DNA from: a virus
IMG/VR virus record: IMGVR_UViG_3300027741_000022
Coordinates: 62,001-126,000 of that record
DNA length: 64,000 nucleotides
Strand: one strand, 5' to 3'
Shown: piece by piece, positions 35,830 to 59,099 of the stretch
Layout: every line of letters starts with the position of its first letter
How positions within the stretch are numbered: the first letter of the stretch is position 1
Position numbers and translations under genes: made by a program
The notes under the pieces: model-generated
Seen by the model: only the letters and a program-made list of their open reading frames with translations
Database searches by the model: none
What the model was told of the DNA's origin: nothing

Positions 35830-36798
35830 TTATGTTGCAGTTGGTGTTGCCGTAGCAGTTGGTGTTGCCGTAGCAGTTGGTGTTGCCGTAGCAGTTGGTG
35901 TTGCCGTAGCAGTTGGTGTTGCCGTAGCAGTTGGTGTTGCTGTAGCAGTTGGTGTTGGAGTTGGAGTTGGAGTTGGAGTAATCAAAGGAACTTCTTCGGA
36001 GCCTACTAAAACTTTAAATCCTTCCGGAGGATTAGATACTGAATTATTAATTGATATTTGACCAAAGACGCCATCGTAAGCATATGGACAAGCGCCCGGA
36101 TAAACATCTCCAGATATAGCTGATATGTCTATTCCACCTGTTGTTGTCGCTGGATCTCCATTGTCGCCATTCCAATCTCCGCCATCAACTCTAAACCAAA
36201 TCGAATTATTCATTCTATCAACGGCAACATCCACAATATTTCCATTTTGTTGAAAATTTAAGCCTAGATTGATGTGATTACCATCAAAAAAGACCTTACC
36301 ATCATCCCAAAAACCAATTGAATTAGCATCTCCACCTAGATAATTATTATTGTTTATATCAGCTTGATGGCTTGCTATTCCCACACCTGTATAACTTTCA
36401 TAATTACCATAAACTGTTACCATGCTGAAAACAACTTTTTCGCCACTTTTTATTGCATAATTTGTTAAAACTATTGTTTCGTCTGCACCACTGTCATCTG
36501 TAAATGAAGCCGTGCAATTATTGTTACTTAATTCTATATAATCCCCAACATAGTTTGGATCAAAAGCAAGAAGCCCCACGGTTTCAAAGGTTCCTATGCC
36601 ATCACTATTTTGAAAAGTTGTGTTATTGAATTCTTCGCCATCTTTGCCTGAAATTATCTTTTTATTACCAGCATTATCTATTTCATACATATTTAATGTG
36701 CGTTGTAGACTTTTACCGTTCAGTATAGATGAATCTAAACTGCCTTCTGAGGCGGGATTAATTAAACCAGGGGTGAGTTTGATGTTGTAGTTTGACAT
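35830..36798 (-). CDS. SPRY-domain surface protein with Thr/Pro/Ala repeat tail
   Basis: The 322-residue protein begins with a domain shared with the small 12129 gene (IKLTPGLIN...EGSLD). Residues about 100-270 resemble a SPRY/concanavalin-like sandwich (VVFSMVTVYGN...VGIASHQ...SIGFWDDGKVFFDG...DVAVDRMNNSIWFRVDGGDWNG). The C-terminal 45 residues are TP and TATATP repeats encoded by 18-bp DNA repeats. Pro/Thr linkers are usual in secreted or virion surface proteins. It may be a decoration or adhesion protein. Confidence 0.78.
   Translation of the reverse strand: MSNYNIKLTPGLINPASEGSLDSSILNGKSLQRTLNMYEIDNAGNKKIISGKDGEEFNNTTFQNSDGIGTFETVGLLAFDPNYVGDYIELSNNNCTASFTDDSGADETIVLTNYAIKSGEKVVFSMVTVYGNYESYTGVGIASHQADINNNNYLGGDANSIGFWDDGKVFFDGNHINLGLNFQQNGNIVDVAVDRMNNSIWFRVDGGDWNGDNGDPATTTGGIDISAISGDVYPGACPYAYDGVFGQISINNSVSNPPEGFKVLVGSEEVPLITPTPTPTPTPTATATPTATATPTATATPTATATPTATATPTATATPTAT
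35838..35979. repeat. tandem 18-bp repeats (and 6-bp repeats) in the SPRY gene tail
   Basis: The + strand shows about six to seven copies of CAGTTGGTGTTGCCGTAG, then four GGAGTT units. Each 18-bp unit encodes TATATP on the minus strand. Near-identical copies suggest recent expansion. Confidence 0.9.
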
Positions 36799-40919: not shown

Positions 40920-41198
40920 TGCCCGATAGCTTAACTGGTAGAGCAAGGGATTTTGTTAAAAACAGGATGCTCTAAGAGAAATTTTAGAAGTAGAATTGCT
41001 TAAATTCGGTGAAAGCTTTAAAATGCCAATACCGAGCCAAGCCTAAGAAAAATCTTAGGAAGGTGTAGAGACTTAACAGGCAACACCTAAAGCTAACGCC
41101 ATGGTGAAGATAAAGTCCAGACCACAAACAGCAATGGTAGTGAAAACTATAGTGGTAAGTGGTTCCCTAGGTTAGAGGTTCGACTCCTCTTCGGGCAT
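40920..41198 (+). tRNA. tRNA-Gln (UUG) split by a group I intron
   Basis: Exon 1 is 40920-40953 and exon 2 is 41160-41198. The joined tRNA has acceptor TGCCCGA/TCGGGCA (U1-A72, typical of Gln), D stem GCTT/GAGC, anticodon stem AGGGA/TCCCT, loop TTTTGGT (anticodon UUG) and T arm AGAGG-TTCGACT-CCTCT. CCA is not encoded. Confidence 0.85.
40954..41159 (+). ncRNA. group I intron in tRNA-Gln
   Basis: The 206-nt insert has conserved group I segments: AATTCGGTGAAAGC, CAATACCGAGCCAAGCC, GAAGGTGTAGAGACTTAACA and AAGTCCAGAC. It ends in G and its P1 pairs the exon TTT with an internal GGA so that a U-G pair marks the 5' site. It sits between anticodon bases 34 and 35 and carries no endonuclease gene. 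Confidence 0.88.
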
Positions 41199-43789: not shown

Positions 43790-43926
43790 CTGACGAAACA
43801 GGTTTCGAACCTGTAACCTAGCGGTTATTCCACTGTTGGGAATTGAACCCAATAAATATCCAGCTTTTTGAGCTTCAATTCAGTGGCTTTGTACAGCCGC
43901 TCGCTCTACCGTTGAGCTATTCGCCA
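43790..43926 (-). tRNA. tRNA-Asn (GUU) with a 65-nt insert in the anticodon loop
   Basis: On the minus strand the outer parts form acceptor TGGCGAA/TTCGTCA with discriminator G (U1-A72 and G73, as in Asn), D arm GCTC/GAGC, anticodon stem AGCGG/CCGCT and T arm ACAGG-TTCGAAA-CCTGT. Removing 43828-43892 gives the loop CTGTTAA, anticodon GUU. The insert lies between bases 35 and 36. CCA is not encoded. Confidence 0.8.
43828..43892 (-). other. tRNA-like structured insert inside tRNA-Asn
   Basis: The insert folds on itself: outer stem CCACTG/CAGTGG, a T-arm-like TTGGG-TTCAATT-CCCAA and a small AGCT hairpin, like a D-armless tRNA. An alternative 13-bp pairing joins CCACTGAATTGAA to TTCAATT and CAGTGG with a 5-nt bulge. 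It does not have group I intron core sequences. Confidence 0.7.
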
Positions 43927-50645: not shown

Positions 50646-51710
50646 ATGACAACCGCTAGTGAAAATATCAAGCCATACGAAGCATACAAAATTCTTGAAA
50701 AGAATTCGTACAAAGATGAAGCTGAAAAGCAAAAGTTATTGGATATTATCAAGACTGATGCTGATTATGCTTACCTTTATGCGTGTAATGTAATCGAAGG
50801 TCGATGGGAAGAATGTGAAGAAGTAATCAAGACTAATCCTTGGAATGCTTGCTATTATGCCCGAGAGATAATCAAAGGTAGATGGATTGAAGCAGAAGAT
50901 ATTATTAAAACTGATTCAGGTAGTGCTTATGCTTACGCAAGACATGTAATCAAGGGTCGCTGGCTTGAAGCAGAAGATATTATTAAAAAAGACCCCACTA
51001 TTTGGTATTGCGACGTTGGCACTGTCATTTCTCTTTATGCAGGGGATGTAATTAAAGGTAGATGGATTGAAGCAGAAGATATTATTAAAACTGATCCATG
51101 TTGTGCTTTTTATTATGCTTTTCATGCAATCGAAGGCAGATGGCTTGAGGGTGAAGATATTATTAAAAATGATCCACAATGGGCTTATGAGTATGCTCAT
51201 TGTGTAATCAAAGATAGATGGATCGAAGCAGAAAATGTTATTAAAACTGATAAGTTTTATGCTTCTTATTATGCAAAATATGTAATCAAAGACGAAAGCT
51301 TTTGGGAAAAACGAGAAGAAGAATTAAAAAAGATTAAGGATGAATTGATTCTTAATGATCCATTAAAATTAATTAACGACATTCACCAAAGCCGTGTAGA
51401 ATACGAACGAATGCGTATTGAATCAGAAAAGAAACGAGAGCAAGAACGTATCGAAGCAGAAAAAGAAAAAGAGCGACAACGTATCGAAGCAGAAAAGGAA
51501 AAAGAGCGTCAAGAACAAATTAGACTGCAAAACATCAAAAACAAGCACCAAAATTTAAATGATTGGCTATCAAAGATACAATCTTTGATCAACGAACACA
51601 ATATTGACGTCAGTTCGTTGATTCCAAACCAAGAAAATGATTTTTGTGAAATTGATGTTAAGAAAAAGATTATGGAATACGTTGCAGACCATATCCCTGT
51701 GACGGTCTGA
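50646..51710 (+). CDS. helical-repeat protein, best member of the family
   Basis: The 354-residue protein has about seven regular repeats of roughly 22-37 residues, for example AYAYARHVIKGRWLEAEDII and NACYYAREIIKGRWIEAEDI, followed by a long charged coiled coil (residues about 220-300) and a small C-terminal domain. The regular tandem suggests recent expansion. Five proteins in the window share the repeat. Confidence 0.75.
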   Translation: MTTASENIKPYEAYKILEKNSYKDEAEKQKLLDIIKTDADYAYLYACNVIEGRWEECEEVIKTNPWNACYYAREIIKGRWIEAEDIIKTDSGSAYAYARHVIKGRWLEAEDIIKKDPTIWYCDVGTVISLYAGDVIKGRWIEAEDIIKTDPCCAFYYAFHAIEGRWLEGEDIIKNDPQWAYEYAHCVIKDRWIEAENVIKTDKFYASYYAKYVIKDESFWEKREEELKKIKDELILNDPLKLINDIHQSRVEYERMRIESEKKREQERIEAEKEKERQRIEAEKEKERQEQIRLQNIKNKHQNLNDWLSKIQSLINEHNIDVSSLIPNQENDFCEIDVKKKIMEYVADHIPVTV

Positions 51711-52423: not shown

Positions 52424-53338
52424 ATGGAAAAGAAGAAGTGTCCCACTTGTGGTAAGGGTATTTCAAGCAAGAAGATTGCCGATAGCTTGATGCCGGATAG
52501 CTTGACGAATCTTGGTACTGTTACTAGGCTCAATAAAGATCTTACTAACAAGATCCAGACCCTCACTAAGGATGAAGTGAGGTATATTGTTGATTACTAT
52601 TATATGATTCAAGAGAATCGTAAGCGAAGCACAAATCAAATCAGTGCTTTTGGCAAGGATAAAGAGCCTCATGAACTGTTTAGCTTCTTGAACGATCAAA
52701 CAGAAGTTCTTGAAACTCAAATCAAGCGGGCTATGGATTATTGGACTGATAGCTTTTTGGTTGCAAAGATTTTGAAGGACAAGGTTTATGGCATTGGTCC
52801 TGTTATTACTGCTGGTCTTGTTGCTCATATTGATATCAATAAGGCAAAGACTGCTGGTGCTATTTGGCGATATGCTGGACTTGATCCAACAAGCAAATGG
52901 GAAAAGGGGCAAAAGCGTCCTTGGAACGCAAGCCTTAAAACCTTGTGCTGGAAGGTTGGACAGAGTTTTATGAAGTTCTCTGGTAAGGAGCAGTGCTTTT
53001 ATGGTAAGCTGTACCAGAAGCAGAAAGAGTTTCTTGTAAACAAGAACAACGAGAATGGATTCAAAGAGCTTTCTGAATCTGTCTTGGATTCAAAGAACTT
53101 CAAGAACAAGGAAGTTTTGGCTAAGTATAAGAGTGGAACTTTGCCAGATGGTCATGTTGATGCTATGGCAAGGCGTTGGGTTGTTAAGTTGTTTTTGAGC
53201 AATGTTCATGAGCTTTGGTGTAAGGTTGAGGGTATTGATTGCCCCAAGCCTTATGTTATGGCTCATTTGGGACACGTTCATCACATTATTCAGCCTGATC
53301 TGCTTGATATTGACAGTTACTTGAAGAAAGAAGATTGA
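52424..53338 (+). CDS. tas: Tas-like (TIGR-associated) Nop-domain protein
   Basis: The 304-residue protein has a short CxxC start (KCPTCGKG), a helical segment (residues 83-120) and a helix-hairpin-helix core VYGIGPVITAGLVAHIDI followed by IWRYAGLDP. That core is typical of the IS110/IS116 transposase C-terminal domain and of the Nop domain of box C/D RNP proteins. There is no RuvC or HNH nuclease, so it is not a normal IS110 transposase and would correspond to a TasA-like form. The TGA stop lies inside the first repeat of the 36-bp dual-spacer array. These facts match RNA-guided TIGR-Tas loci of phages. The fold assignment is by motif only. Confidence 0.8.
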   Translation: MEKKKCPTCGKGISSKKIADSLMPDSLTNLGTVTRLNKDLTNKIQTLTKDEVRYIVDYYYMIQENRKRSTNQISAFGKDKEPHELFSFLNDQTEVLETQIKRAMDYWTDSFLVAKILKDKVYGIGPVITAGLVAHIDINKAKTAGAIWRYAGLDPTSKWEKGQKRPWNASLKTLCWKVGQSFMKFSGKEQCFYGKLYQKQKEFLVNKNNENGFKELSESVLDSKNFKNKEVLAKYKSGTLPDGHVDAMARRWVVKLFLSNVHELWCKVEGIDCPKPYVMAHLGHVHHIIQPDLLDIDSYLKKED

Positions 53339-54993
53339 ACCATGCTCGTCGATTTTAACATGAGTTTTGAGTGAACCACTAATCTTGATTTTAACAGACT
53401 CCAAGAGTGAACCAAAGTACGCGATTTTTAACAAGCGGATAGAGTGAACCAGCGTTTCAGATTTTAACAAAATATTCGAGTGAACCACCGCGATTGATTT
53501 TAACAAACTGGAAGAGTGAACCATGCGTTATGATTTTAACAACAACAGAGAGTGAACCATTTTTGCGGATTTTAACAACAGGTGAGAGTGAACCAAGGAC
53601 GAAAATTTCAACAACCTGCTTGAGTGAACCAAGGATTCCGATTTTAACACTTCGCAAGAGTGAACCTTTCCTGCCGATTTAGCACAATGCCTGAGTGAAC
53701 CATCAAAGTTGATTTTAACAGAGATGACGAGTGAACCATACCCGCTGATTTTAACAGTCCGCAAGAGTGAACCATCGAATCGGATTTTAACAACTGAGAT
53801 GAGTGAACCAACAAAGGAGATTTTAACATCAAGGTGGAGTGAACCAGTTTTTTGGATTTTAACAAATTGCGGGAGTGAACCACGAAAACAGATTTTAACA
53901 TAATCCGAGAGTGAATGGATTGATTTTAACAGTGGTAGAGAGCGAACCAGAATTGAGGATTTTGCATAGATGACGAGTGAACCAGCCATCAGGATTTTAA
54001 CACGCTGTACGAGTGAACCACTTGATATGATTTAGCAATATGTACGAGTGAACCATACGACTGGATTTTAACACACTACCCGAGTGAACCATGCGCGAAG
54101 ATTTTAACAGCATCAACGAGTGAACCACCAGAAGTGATTTTAAACAACTGAGGCGAGTGAACCACATTGGTCGATTTTAACACGGCAAACGAGTGAACCA
54201 CGCGGCTCGATTTTAACAAGCAAGGCGAGTGAACCATGCTCTTTGATTTTAACATGGGTTAAGAAGTGAACCAATCGACGCGATTTTTAACACGCCTCCC
54301 GAGTGAACCAGGGTTTCAGATTTTAACAAAATATTCGAGTGAACCACTTGATATGATTTAGCAATATGTACGAGTGAACCAAATTTCTTGATTTTAACAG
54401 GCGTGTAGAGTGAACCATACGCGACGATTTTAACAGCATCGAGGAGTGAACCACCAGAAGTGATTTTAAACAACGGAGGCGAGTGAACCACAGTGGTCAA
54501 TTTTAACACAGCAAACGAGTGAACCAACCTCGCATATTTTTAACAAACTGGACGAGTGAACCATTCGAATTGATTTTACACAGTGGAAGAGTGAACCAAA
54601 GTTTTTGATTTTAACATGATTCCAGAGTGAACCACGAAGTCTGATTTTTAACAGGCTGCCAGAGTGAACCATTTTTGGGATTTTAACAAAACGTCAGAGT
54701 GAACCAGCGAGCCAGATTTTTAACAAAGTACCAGAGTGAACCACCCTGCACTATTTTAACACCCACGGCGAGTGAACCATCGACAAGGATTTTACATGCA
54801 ATACTAGTGAACCAGTTCGCAGGATTTTAACACGCAGAAGGAGTGAACCATTTCGGACGATTTTAACATAATTGATGAGTGAACCAAGCTTGTTGATTTT
54901 AACAGGGTAGCCGAGTGAACCATCTTTGAAGATTTTACACAAAAGCCGAGTGAACCATATCCGCTGATTTTAAAAACGGAAAAGAGTGAACCA
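53333..54993 (+). repeat. TIGR-like array: about 46 units of 36 bp with two spacers each
   Basis: Each unit is GAGTGAACCA, 8 variable bases, GATTTTAACA, 8 variable bases. The two decamers match each other at 6 of 10 positions (GAnTnnAnCA), so the array also has an 18-bp pseudo-period. Most spacers differ. Variant blocks include GATTTAGCA and GATTTTTAACA. The array begins inside the tas stop region and its last half-repeat ends 2 nt before ATG 54996. In TIGR-Tas loci, tandem units are processed to 36-nt guide RNAs with two short spacers, which is the same length and layout as here. Confidence 0.88.
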
Positions 54994-54995
54994 AA

Positions 54996-55157
54996 ATGAC
55001 TAAATTAATCATGACAATTAGAGTTGCAGTTGATCTTGACAATCAAGATGCTATTGACGATGCTGTGGATAGCCTGGACGTTACTATAGTCGATCGATCA
55101 ATCGATCAATATGCCAATGTAGAGATACTGTCCAGTTCTATTGATGAGATAAGATAA
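54996..55157 (+). CDS. small hypothetical protein after the array (53 aa)
   Basis: The frame (TKLIMTIRVAVDLDNQDAI...) starts 2 nt after the last repeat and is followed by the HTH gene after 3 nt. The repeat itself supplies a GAG sequence at ribosome-site distance. It is a beta/alpha acidic peptide. Confidence 0.6.
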   Translation: MTKLIMTIRVAVDLDNQDAIDDAVDSLDVTIVDRSIDQYANVEILSSSIDEIR

Positions 55158-55160
55158 AAC

Positions 55161-55403
55161 ATGAAACAAGAAAACAAAGATCTATTAAAAAGTTTCAAAG
55201 CTGCCAAAAAAAGAACTGACACGCGGGTTTTTGTCGAAACCGTTGTAGATGTGTGGCAAAAAGGCGGAGATATTAAAACAGTTGCAGAAGAACTTGGTAT
55301 TACTCCTGGTGCTGTTAGAAGTAGAATCAAGAGCCTGAGGAGCAAGGTCACCGCTTGGGGCAGTTATGGTGTAGAAATTCCTGAGTTTCCGAAAAAGGTT
55401 TAA
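55161..55403 (+). CDS. helix-turn-helix regulator, paralogue of 24184 gene
   Basis: The 80-residue protein has KTVAEELGITPGAVRSRIK as a helix-turn-helix and an IPEFPKK end shared with the 24184 protein. It follows the array and could regulate the locus, but this is only position-based. Confidence 0.7.
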   Translation: MKQENKDLLKSFKAAKKRTDTRVFVETVVDVWQKGGDIKTVAEELGITPGAVRSRIKSLRSKVTAWGSYGVEIPEFPKKV

Positions 55404-56710
55404 TGATGCTGGACAAGATTAAAAACTCAGAAGTTTATTCAAAAATTAAACTTCTTGATAATCAAAGAACAAGCATGGCTGAAATTCTGGGTGAGGTTAA
55501 GAGCCACCACCAGTTTTATATTGACTTCTTGCTTGGTTTTATTCGGAATAAGCCCAATGCTTTGAAGGAAGATATTCGATATGCCCTGGACGTTGCTTCT
55601 TTTTATAAGGATAAGCCTGAACAGTTTGAGTACAAAAGTTTAAAGCCAATAGAATTGGGTGAGAAAAAATTCAAGGAAATTGCTAAAGCTTTTAATGAAA
55701 AGATAATTTCTAAGAACAAAAGTAAAATTCAAAAAGCAAAGCAAAAAGGCAAACTCATAGATAATGTAACCGTTGATGTTATCTATGAGGATAATGAATA
55801 TAAGCTGTATTTTATCCCAAAGCTCAAAAATGATTACTCAAAAGAAGAGCTAAATATCCAGCATTTGAAGTTTTGTTTTGTGGGATACGGAACAGAATGG
55901 TGTACGGCTCATCCTTCAGGCAATTATTATGAAGATTATGTCACACACGACATTTATACTCTTCACTTTAAAAACAAACCACACTCACAGTTCAACTTAG
56001 TGGGTGAAGAACTAAAAGAAATAGATCAAATGATGGATAGGGAAGATGAATATATTTCTGTTTTAAACCCGAAAATAATTTCTATCCTTGAAAAAGCTAC
56101 TGGTAAATCTGTTGATTTTAACAAATATCACCTGGCTGGAAAATATCGTCAAAAATTAGAGCATTTATCTGATGATGATAAAGCAAAAGCTATGTTTGAA
56201 ATAGAGCTCGAAGGAGATAAGCCTATTTACGAAAAAACAGAATTAGAATTAAAATTAGTTAAGGATATAATTTATTACTACAATTTACACGAAAATAAAT
56301 TGTTGGGAAAATTTGCATATGATAAATACAATAAAAATCTTCTCGCAATGTCATTATATTTGAACACAATCCTGAAAAGCAGATGGATAGAAGCAGAACC
56401 TGAAATTTTGAAAAATCTTTTGTCCTCGGACAAAACAGAAGCAGAGTTTGCTATTTCGTTTGTTGTAACATATGCAGAAAAAATCTTAAAAGGTAGATGG
56501 ATAGAAGCAGAACCTAACATTTTGAAAAATTCAGCTTTTGCTTATTTGTATGCAAGGCATGTTATAAAAGGCAGATGGATAGAAGCGGAAAAAAGCACGT
56601 TTAGCATTAATGATATTAATCGTGTGCTTTATGCAAGCGAAATGTTTGGCAATGATTATGAAGCTTATGAAGAATTTCAAAATGCAATCAAAACAAGCGA
56701 AATATCTTGA
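55403..56710 (+). CDS. PcfJ-like/helical-repeat protein
   Basis: The 435-residue protein has a helical N-terminus, a centre with GYGTEWCTAHPSGNYYEDYV and LYTLHFKNKPHSQFNLV-like strands (loosely like the late rIIB/PcfJ region) and C-terminal repeats ILKGRWIEAEPNILKN and YARHVIKGRWIEAEK of the local repeat family. Start overlaps the HTH gene stop (TAATG). Confidence 0.62.
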   Translation: MMLDKIKNSEVYSKIKLLDNQRTSMAEILGEVKSHHQFYIDFLLGFIRNKPNALKEDIRYALDVASFYKDKPEQFEYKSLKPIELGEKKFKEIAKAFNEKIISKNKSKIQKAKQKGKLIDNVTVDVIYEDNEYKLYFIPKLKNDYSKEELNIQHLKFCFVGYGTEWCTAHPSGNYYEDYVTHDIYTLHFKNKPHSQFNLVGEELKEIDQMMDREDEYISVLNPKIISILEKATGKSVDFNKYHLAGKYRQKLEHLSDDDKAKAMFEIELEGDKPIYEKTELELKLVKDIIYYYNLHENKLLGKFAYDKYNKNLLAMSLYLNTILKSRWIEAEPEILKNLLSSDKTEAEFAISFVVTYAEKILKGRWIEAEPNILKNSAFAYLYARHVIKGRWIEAEKSTFSINDINRVLYASEMFGNDYEAYEEFQNAIKTSEIS

Positions 56711-57989: not shown

Positions 57990-58403
57990 GTGCACAGTAA
58001 AAGGAAAGGAAATATAGGACAATTTGGTGTAGGACTAGCCTTGTCTAAGTTGGGCTATTCAATCTTTACAGAAGAAGGGGATATTTCTAAGATTGATTTA
58101 ATAGCAGAAAAAAATAATAATTTATTGAAAATTCAATGTAAAGCGGTAACACCTTCTTCAAAAGGATTTATACCAATTCCTTTGAAAAAAAGTGGACCTA
58201 ACTACCAGTTCAAGTATAATTCTAAAATGTTTGATTATTTTGGAGTTTACGATTTAGAAGATGGCTCTGTATATTTGATACCATCTTCTGTGCTAGACAG
58301 CCACAACAATATGTTTAGCTTAAGAAAATCAAAACCTAAAAATAACCAAATAGTTGGTGTGAATTATGCAGAGGACTATCTAGTTAAAAATATACTTGGA
58401 TAA
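57990..58403 (+). CDS. PD-(D/E)XK endonuclease, probable homing enzyme
   Basis: A GTG start follows AAGGAGG. The 137-residue protein has GQFGVGLALSKLGY, then DISKIDLIAE and LLKIQCKAV, the D...QxK core of the PD-(D/E)XK group that includes the cyanobacterial intron enzyme I-SspI. It lies between two intron-bearing tRNA genes. The introns lack their own endonuclease gene, so this protein probably spreads one or more of them by cutting intronless tRNA genes. Confidence 0.78.
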   Translation: MHSKRKGNIGQFGVGLALSKLGYSIFTEEGDISKIDLIAEKNNNLLKIQCKAVTPSSKGFIPIPLKKSGPNYQFKYNSKMFDYFGVYDLEDGSVYLIPSSVLDSHNNMFSLRKSKPKNNQIVGVNYAEDYLVKNILG

Positions 58404-58414
58404 AAACAAAACAC

Positions 58415-58687
58415 GGGAGCGTAGACCAACGGCAGAGTCAAAGGACTTGATATTAAATTGAGTGCTTAAAGAGAAATCTTTAATGTAGAATCGCTTAAAT
58501 TCGGTGAAAGCTTAACTGCCAATACCGAGCCAAGCCTAGAAATAGGAAGGTGTAGAGACTTAACAGGCGACACCTAAAGTCGAAAGACAATGGTGAAGAT
58601 AAAGTCCAGACTACAAACCGCAAGGGTAGTGAAAACTATAGTAGTAAGAAAATCCTTCAAGTACGAGTTCGAATCTCGTCGCTCCTA
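58415..58687 (+). tRNA. tRNA-Leu-like (UAA) split by a group I intron
   Basis: Exon 1 is 58415-58448 and exon 2 is 58649-58687. The joined RNA has acceptor GGGAGCG/CGCTCCT with discriminator A, anticodon stem AAGGA/TCCTT with loop CTTAAAA (anticodon UAA) and T arm ACGAG-TTCGAAT-CTCGT. The variable loop is only 5 nt, while bacterial tRNA-Leu normally has a long arm, so the amino-acid identity is uncertain. Confidence 0.8.
58449..58648 (+). ncRNA. group I intron in tRNA-Leu-like gene
   Basis: The 200-nt insert is close to the tRNA-Lys intron in the core (CAATACCGAGCCAAGCC, GGTGTAGAGACTTAACAG, AAGTCCAGAC) and ends in G. It interrupts the anticodon after U34, as in the classic cyanobacterial tRNA-Leu(UAA) intron. 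No frame is inside. Confidence 0.93.
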
Positions 58688-58733
58688 CTGTCATCGATGT
58701 TAATTTAATTTATTCACTAACTAACTAAAACTC

Positions 58734-59094
58734 GGGGACGAATTTGGTATCGACTGGATAAAAAGATTTATAATTGCATGTCGGAGTTAGTCGATGGCTC
58801 CGTTAAAAATCGACTAAAGCCTTAACCGGCACTGTTAATTACGCAATGGCTGCCTGATAAAAAGGGCTACCACGGATTTAGGAAGCTACTGTAGGATGCG
58901 TCCTAATAATTCGTCGTCAAATCCTACTGGTTTTCTGATGGTCAACTTATCAGAAAATGAGAAAATAGGTTGAGAGGTTTTAAAGACTTTTGTTTATTGT
59001 AGTCTTTAAGGTCTTATTGAACAATAAGCCAAACATGTGAAGAAGTTATATTTTGATTTATCTCAGGACAGGAGTTCAACTCTCCTCGTCTCCA
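58734..59094 (+). ncRNA. ssrA: tmRNA
   Basis: The 361-nt RNA starts GGGGACGAATTTGGTATCGA, as tmRNAs do, and ends CAGGAGTTCAACTCTCCT, then CGTCTCCA, pairing with GGGGACG to close the tRNA-like domain. The inner frame ends in GTT-AAT-TAC-GCA-ATG-GCT-GCC-TGA-TAA, giving a tag tail VNYAMAA like the bacterial NYALAA; with GCC as the likely resume codon the tag would be ALTGTVNYAMAA. Several pseudoknot-like arms follow. CCA is not encoded. It would rescue stalled ribosomes during infection. Confidence 0.93.
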
Positions 59095-59099
59095 CTTTC

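What the first reader, a model, noticed from the sequence alone, without database searches (positions are those of the whole stretch)
52424..54993. TIGR-Tas-like RNA-guided locus: Nop/IS110-like protein plus 36-bp dual-spacer array
Seen: a nuclease-free protein with the GIGPVITAGL helix-hairpin-helix core shared by the IS110 C-terminal domain and Nop-type box C/D proteins, followed at once by about 46 units of two conserved decamers separated by two 8-base variable spacers. Known: TIGR-Tas loci in phages pair a Nop-domain Tas protein with arrays that give 36-nt RNAs holding two short spacers. The unit length, two-spacer design and gene order match. Inference: this is a working or recent TIGR locus of the TasA-like type. 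With no RuvC or HNH domain it may bind and block rather than cut, or recruit a separate nuclease.
Basis: partly seen in the sequence, partly recalled or inferred. Interest (0 to 1): 0.96.

Follow-up and report, generated by a model that had tools for sequence, protein, structure and literature searches.

The report
TIGR-TasA guide array in phage
A large bacterial virus carries a known but recently discovered kind of RNA-guided DNA-binding system (TIGR-Tas, the version without a cutting domain) with an unusually long library of 46 two-part guides, probably used to block the DNA of rival genetic elements.

Summary
The window lies in a 187.6-kb IMG/VR virus contig. ORF 52424-53338 (304 aa) matches NCBIfam's curated TIGR-Tas model (184.5 bits, cut-off 100), and TasH (E=8e-17) and TasR (7e-12) among solved structures. 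Its AlphaFold model (pLDDT 85.5) finds only TasH and TasR structures in the PDB below E=1e-3. It has no HNH or RuvC domain, so it is TasA. The array (53333-54993) has 46 units: edge GAGTGAACCA, 8-nt spacer A, loop GATTTTAACA, 8-nt spacer B. It starts inside the tasA stop codon. About 60 of 74 viral relatives carry arrays of the same design. Repeat positions covary as the TasR structure predicts, and this array obeys the rule.

New details: tasA is 93% identical in two otherwise diverged large phages (median ORF identity about 50%), where arrays with the same repeats but other spacers sit elsewhere. One spacer pair recurs with A and B swapped, as dual-strand targeting would allow. No other gene is consistently linked to tasA. 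No natural target was found. Most likely use: guided DNA binding and blocking. New member of a known kind.

The parts
52424..53338 (+). tasA: 304-aa solo Nop/IS110-C-terminal-like protein without a nuclease domain
   Evidence: NCBIfam NF052498 TIGR_Tas_endo 184.5 bits, cut-off 100; phrog_4285 E=2.7e-35; Pfam Transposase_20 21.5 bits, cut-off 21.3; PDB TasH E=7.8e-17 and TasR E=6.5e-12; fold match to TasH/TasR
52790..52819 (+). GIGPVITAGL helix-hairpin-helix core, residues 123-132
   Evidence: G123, G125, A130 and L132 at least 90% conserved in 49-50 relatives; sequence reading
52439..52450 (+). N-terminal CPTC knuckle (residues 6-9); low-confidence segment seen only in this protein and its two closest relatives
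   Evidence: alignment A2, pLDDT about 50 in the model
53333..54993 (+). TIGR array: 46 units of edge repeat GAGTGAACCA, 8-nt spacer A, loop repeat GATTTTAACA (9-11 nt), 8-nt spacer B
   Evidence: parse; pattern count against control
53333..53342 (+). first edge repeat GATTGAACCA, overlapping the tasA stop codon TGA (53336-53338)
53586..53631 (+). unit with spacers AGGACGAA / ACCTGCTT, present with A and B swapped (15/16) in the array of relative G001 (G002: 14/16)
53909..53921 (+). damaged edge (GAGTGAA, CCA lost) plus a shortened spacer: a 5-nt deletion that fuses units 16 and 17
54011..54662 (+). internal segmental duplication (2 x 326 bp): edge repeats kept, several spacers changed or replaced
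54984..54993 (+). last edge repeat, 2 nt before the ATG of the next ORF; no terminator-like site follows on the + strand
54996..55157 (+). short ORF (53 aa) of unknown function directly after the array
   Evidence: sequence reading; no confident family

Best explanation
This is a TIGR-TasA locus of a large tailed-phage-like virus. tasA and the array are read as one transcript. TasA dimers bind the precursor through the box-D-like GA and box-C-like CA ends of the edge and loop repeats. A host RNase cuts in the middle of the edge repeats to give about 46 tigRNAs of 35-37 nt. In each RNP, spacer A pairs with one DNA strand and spacer B with the other strand of a 16-bp target (A followed by the reverse complement of B, gap 0-2), opening and bending the DNA. 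Without a nuclease, the outcome is most likely occupancy: blocking transcription, replication or maintenance of a competing mobile element. Shown here: protein family and fold, array architecture, repeat covariation, lack of a nuclease domain, recent lateral exchange of tasA. Taken from work on relatives (Faure et al. 2025): 36-nt processing, dual-strand targeting, and that TasA binds the RNA. Inferred: expression, blocking, rival elements as targets.
For: Curated TIGR-Tas profile above cut-off. PDB phmmer TasH 7.8e-17, TasR 6.5e-12; family profile TasH 6.4e-74, TasR 5.7e-36, IS621 2.6e-7. AF2 model pLDDT 85.5; all 11 Foldseek hits with E<=1e-3 are TasH or TasR. Array parse. 74 viral relatives, about 60 with period-36 dual-repeat arrays. 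Edge pairs 3-8 (90% paired, 74.6% expected if independent) and 4-7 (93.2%, 78.1%), loop pair 81% against 59.5%; the window's edge is G-C/T-A and its loop T-A where relatives have G-C. TasH branch separate, 100/100; window among the TasA rows. No linked nuclease or other partner. TasA of Flavonifractor binds 36-nt tigRNAs, and dual-strand targeting rules are published. Swapped spacer pairs between arrays.
Against: No RNA data. No natural target found in the phage itself or in two relatives above chance, or in 1.3 Mb of related loci. No terminator after the array, unlike the typical published locus. One unit is damaged and some loop repeats have lost the G of box D, so some of the array may be idle. 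Blocking as outcome is unproven even for characterised TasA.
Confidence: 0.72

Rival explanations
1. TIGR-TasA that guides a separate nuclease or recombinase of phage or host to the target, rather than blocking by itself.
For: TasA lacks a nuclease; the bent, opened target could serve another enzyme; a PDDEXK ORF lies 4.6 kb downstream. Faure et al. note tasParB operons and a possible integrase aid, and a ParB-like ORF recurs near seven close-kin TasA loci.
Against: Nothing but tasA itself is conserved across loci (63 of 74; next family 8, nearly all close kin). The PDDEXK ORF looks like a homing endonuclease tied to the neighbouring group I intron.
Confidence: 0.12
2. TIGR-TasA used to regulate the phage's own genes or the host chromosome (gene control), not rival elements.
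For: Blocking without cutting would suit regulation; the array is long.
Against: Own genome shows no exact target in any geometry and one-mismatch hits at control level; most spacers differ between relatives, which argues against conserved own targets. The host genome is unknown, so host targets are not excluded.
Confidence: 0.15
3. A relic: tasA intact but the array decaying and no longer used.
For: Damaged unit 53909-53921, a few loops with AA or TA in place of GA, loop-length variants.
Against: tasA differs from its relatives mostly at synonymous positions (65 synonymous against 21 non-synonymous codons). 39 of 44 parsed edges are perfect, and loop variants nearly all keep CA and the adjacent pair.
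Confidence: 0.08
4. IS110-type transposase remnant with an unrelated tandem repeat.
For: Pfam and PHROG label the family transposase.
Against: No DEDD/RuvC N-terminus; IS110 model far below its cut-off (26.1 against 140) while the TIGR-Tas model is well above its own; repeats covary as TIGR repeats across relatives.
Confidence: 0.01

Closest known systems
TIGR-TasA (e.g. Flavonifractor plautii FpTIGR; Faure et al. 2025, PMC12045711)
   Same: Solo Nop-domain protein followed by an array of alternating edge and loop repeats with two short spacers per 36-nt unit
   Different: 8-nt spacers (Fp: 9); 46 units against the usual 5-15; no terminator after the array; CPTC N-terminal extension; box motifs GA/CA instead of UG/CCA of TasR
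TIGR-TasH (Salicola phage CGphi29 SpTIGR; PDB 21kl, 9vzx, 9w04)
   Same: Phage-borne; 8-nt spacers, 16 nt in all; its edge repeat AAGCGAGCCA obeys the same 3-8 / 4-7 pairing; closest solved relative (33% over 171 aa; 6.4e-74 with the family profile)
   Different: TasH has an N-terminal HNH nuclease and cuts; this protein lacks it and lies on another well-supported branch
TIGR-TasR (TaTasR, PDB 9mty)
   Same: Nop core and array logic
   Different: TasR has an active RuvC nuclease; UG/CCA boxes; 9-nt spacers
IS110/IS621 bridge-RNA transposases
   Same: Shared C-terminal HhH/Nop-like RNA-binding domain (2.6e-7 with the family profile)
   Different: No DEDD transposase domain, no bridge RNA, no transposon ends; an array instead
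VIPR (PMC13142463)
   Same: Phage-encoded RNA-guided DNA binding with targets mapped to competing phages and shown to repress transcription: a functional analogue
   Different: RAMP protein and GGY/NN vrRNA, unrelated protein and guide code

Membership tests
TIGR-Tas | Nop-domain Tas protein | tested here: met
   NF052498 184.5 bits, cut-off 100; Foldseek TasH/TasR only at E<=1e-3
TIGR-Tas | Adjacent array of two alternating 8-12-nt repeats with two short spacers, unit about 36 nt | tested here: met
TIGR-Tas | Box C/D motifs shared by edge and loop repeats, with a covarying extra pair in the edge repeat | tested here: met
   GA...CA in both repeats; edge pairs 3-8 and 4-7 covary across the parsed loci. 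The letters of the boxes differ from TasR's UG/CCA but match phage relatives
TIGR-Tas | Array processed into 36-nt tigRNAs bound by Tas | not testable with these tools
   needs RNA sequencing
TIGR-Tas | tigRNA-guided DNA binding, A on one strand and B on the other | tested here: inconclusive
   Swapped spacer pairs between arrays agree with it, but no natural target found
TasA subtype | No nuclease domain fused | tested here: met
   304 aa, N-terminus lacks the HNH segment of TasH; TasH rows form a separate branch
TIGR-Tas (typical layout) | Rho-independent terminator after a truncated last edge repeat | tested here: not met
   last edge is full length and no + strand terminator-like site follows it; described as 'typically' in the paper, not a defining feature
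TIGR-TasA with tasParB | parB-like gene in the operon | tested here: not met
   no ParB-like hit among the neighbouring ORFs scanned between 49.4 and 58.4 kb
IS110 transposase | N-terminal DEDD domain and full-length IS110 profile | tested here: not met
   26.1 bits against a cut-off of 140, partial match only

The most novel reading that the evidence does not exclude
Phage TIGR arrays gain spacer pairs from double-stranded protospacers by an unknown acquisition process. The same 16-bp protospacer taken from opposite strands then appears as an A/B-swapped unit in different arrays (window 53586 against G001; L060 against L061), while the effector gene tasA is passed between diverged large phages independently of its array.
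Probability: 0.15. Interest if true: 0.75.

Novelty: new member of a known kind. Interest (0 to 1): 0.42.

Why it matters
The natural role, targets and spacer origin of TIGR-Tas are open questions, and TasA, its commonest effector, is the least understood. This locus, with two relatives that share the effector (93%) and the repeats but hardly any spacers, is a rare three-way comparison of array evolution. It shows effector exchange between diverged phages, arrays in different places, segmental duplication, spacer change with repeats kept, and an A/B-swapped shared unit, which is what the dual-strand targeting rule allows. The pairing rule found across about 60 arrays gives a simple test for finding further arrays.

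Tried and rejected
(1) Targets in the phage itself and in G001/G002: four geometries, gaps 0-2, no excess over control geometries. (2) 886 unique spacer pairs against 1.32 Mb of held DNA: 4 independent exact hits in the expected geometry at gap 1-2, but similar numbers elsewhere among controls; not significant. (3) IMG/VR pattern scans for the two swapped-pair targets gave 39 and 55 hits, in the range I would expect by chance from a collection of that size; a second spacer matching the same contig was no commoner than in the control geometry. (4) genome-contig scans found no cellular relative. (5) Single-sequence AF2 was useless, pLDDT 36.8. (6) Independent acquisition as sole cause of the swap at 53586: the two preceding units also show A-to-B likeness in the same order (7/8 and 6/8; about 1e-4 for a given neighbour pair), so shared descent with exchange of roles is equally possible; the L060/L061 swap is isolated. 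(7) Swap rows in L119, L068 and L095 are parsing artefacts (loop taken for edge). (8) VIPR considered and rejected as family: no GGY/NN repeats, different protein. (9) PADLOC has no matching model; phages collection, megablast of the upstream 12 kb: no match.

Full report
**Observation.** The window is bases 62001-126000 of a 187,644-bp virus record. ORF 52424-53338 encodes 304 aa. Directly after it, from 53333 to 54993, lie 46 loop repeats (GATTTTAACA and variants) alternating with edge repeats (GAGTGAACCA), separated almost everywhere by 8 nt of variable sequence. The edge-N8-loop pattern with up to 3 mismatches occurs 38 times on the + strand of the contig, never on the other strand and never for the reversed control. 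The first edge repeat overlaps the tasA stop codon. The last edge ends 2 nt before the next ATG. One edge (53909) has lost its CCA. Loop repeats of 9, 10 and 11 nt differ only inside the T-run. A 326-bp block is duplicated (54011-54336, 54337-54662): the repeats are kept, while some spacer pairs are identical, some mutated and some completely different.

**Protein.** NCBIfam has a curated model for this family, TIGR_Tas_endo, and the protein scores 184.5 bits against a cut-off of 100; the IS110 model gives 26.1 against 140. Sequence search of the PDB gives TasH at 7.8e-17 and TasR at 6.5e-12. The profile of 49 relatives raises these to 6.4e-74 and 5.7e-36 and brings in IS621 at 2.6e-7. The AlphaFold model made with the 49 relatives (pLDDT 85.5, pTM 0.80) finds 11 PDB chains at E<=1e-3, all TasH or TasR; Nop5 appears only as a weak match (E=2.1). 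The N-terminus has no HNH or RuvC domain. It has a CPTC knuckle seen only in this protein and its two nearest relatives, modelled with low confidence. In the tree the TasH rows sit together (100/100) and the window protein lies among the TasA rows.

**Relatives and the repeat rule.** A scan of IMG/VR gave 74 related loci, about 60 of which carry arrays with period 33-38, mostly 36. Edge consensus sequences include GAGCGAGCCA, GAACGAGTCA, GAATGAATCA, GATCGAGACA and GAGTGAACCA: position 3 pairs with 8 (G-C, A-T, T-A) and position 4 with 7 (C-G, T-A). Over 1,024 individual edges, 90% and 93% are paired against 75% and 78% expected from composition. The loop pair next to the boxes is paired in 81% against 60% expected. 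The window's loop GATTTTAACA looks odd beside the common GAGAGAACCA, but it has simply exchanged G-C for T-A. The TasR structure showed a covarying extra pair in the edge repeat, so this matches a published structural feature. It is a count over related sequences, not an independent proof.

**Two close relatives.** G001 (251 kb) and G002 (323 kb) share 93% of TasA residues. The nucleotide similarity (89%) stops at the gene's ends, and the fourfold-site divergence is 0.29-0.31 against a median of 0.59-0.63 for other shared genes; median ORF identity is about 50%. So tasA has been exchanged more recently than most of the genome. In both relatives the array has the same repeats but begins about 2 kb downstream of tasA (G001) or is split into two parts around other genes (G002). 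G001 and G002 share 12 near-identical units; the window's array shares almost none with them.

**Swapped units.** Among 1,024 units, two inter-array pairs match 15/16 with A and B exchanged: window 53586 against G001, and L060 against L061. About 0.006 are expected by simple arithmetic, and 20 column-shuffled sets gave none. Reverse-complement controls gave none at 2 mismatches or fewer. If A pairs with one strand and B with the other, as shown for TasR, a swapped unit addresses the same site. For the window case the two preceding units also show A-to-B likeness in order (7/8, 6/8), so shared descent with exchanged roles competes with independent capture of the same site.

**Targets.** None found. 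The phage itself and its two relatives show no excess. The pool of related loci gives a few exact hits in the expected geometry, but not more than controls. Single 16-nt sites are too short for searches of all IMG/VR.

**Function.** Faure et al. found TasA bound to 36-nt tigRNAs, suspected a conserved host RNase for processing, showed dual-strand DNA targeting by TasR and TasH, and suggested that TasA blocks rather than cuts. Across the 74 loci no other gene recurs beside tasA except in close kin, so a dedicated partner nuclease is unlikely. VIPR, an unrelated phage system, represses competing phages by guided DNA binding, which makes the blocking model plausible by analogy only.

**Verdict.** It is long (46 units; a few relatives are similar), lacks the usual terminator, and gives a useful three-phage comparison.

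Noticed in passing
window 58411-58690 with 57990-58403: A group I intron (RF00028, 58439-58624) appears to interrupt a tRNA gene (5' part GGAGCGTAGACC..., 3' part ...TTCGAATCTCGTCGCTCC), with a PDDEXK_5 / homing-endonuclease-like ORF just upstream.
   Followed up: partly
window 58734-59097: A complete tmRNA gene in the phage, tag peptide GTVNYAMAA.
   Followed up: no
window 40943-41140: A second group I intron (RF00028).
   Followed up: no
window 43790-43926, - strand: Rfam tRNA match spanning 137 nt, not reported by ARAGORN: possibly another interrupted tRNA.
   Followed up: no
window 50646-51710 and 55403-56710: Two proteins that share repeated 'YA..VIKGRWIEAE' units flank the tas locus; a homologue of the first also lies near tasA in G001 and G002.
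   Followed up: partly
G002:109755-112860 (L003 7333-10420): In G002 the TIGR array is split around about 2.4 kb of other genes, and G001-G002 similarity ends at the array edge: arrays seem to be recombination breakpoints.
   Followed up: partly
window 35837-35975: Tandem array of 7.7 copies of an 18-bp unit, GCAGTTGGTGTTGCCGTA.
   Followed up: no
L072 and L086: Other phage TasA loci with parses of 47 and 49 units, so very long arrays are not unique to this window.
   Followed up: no
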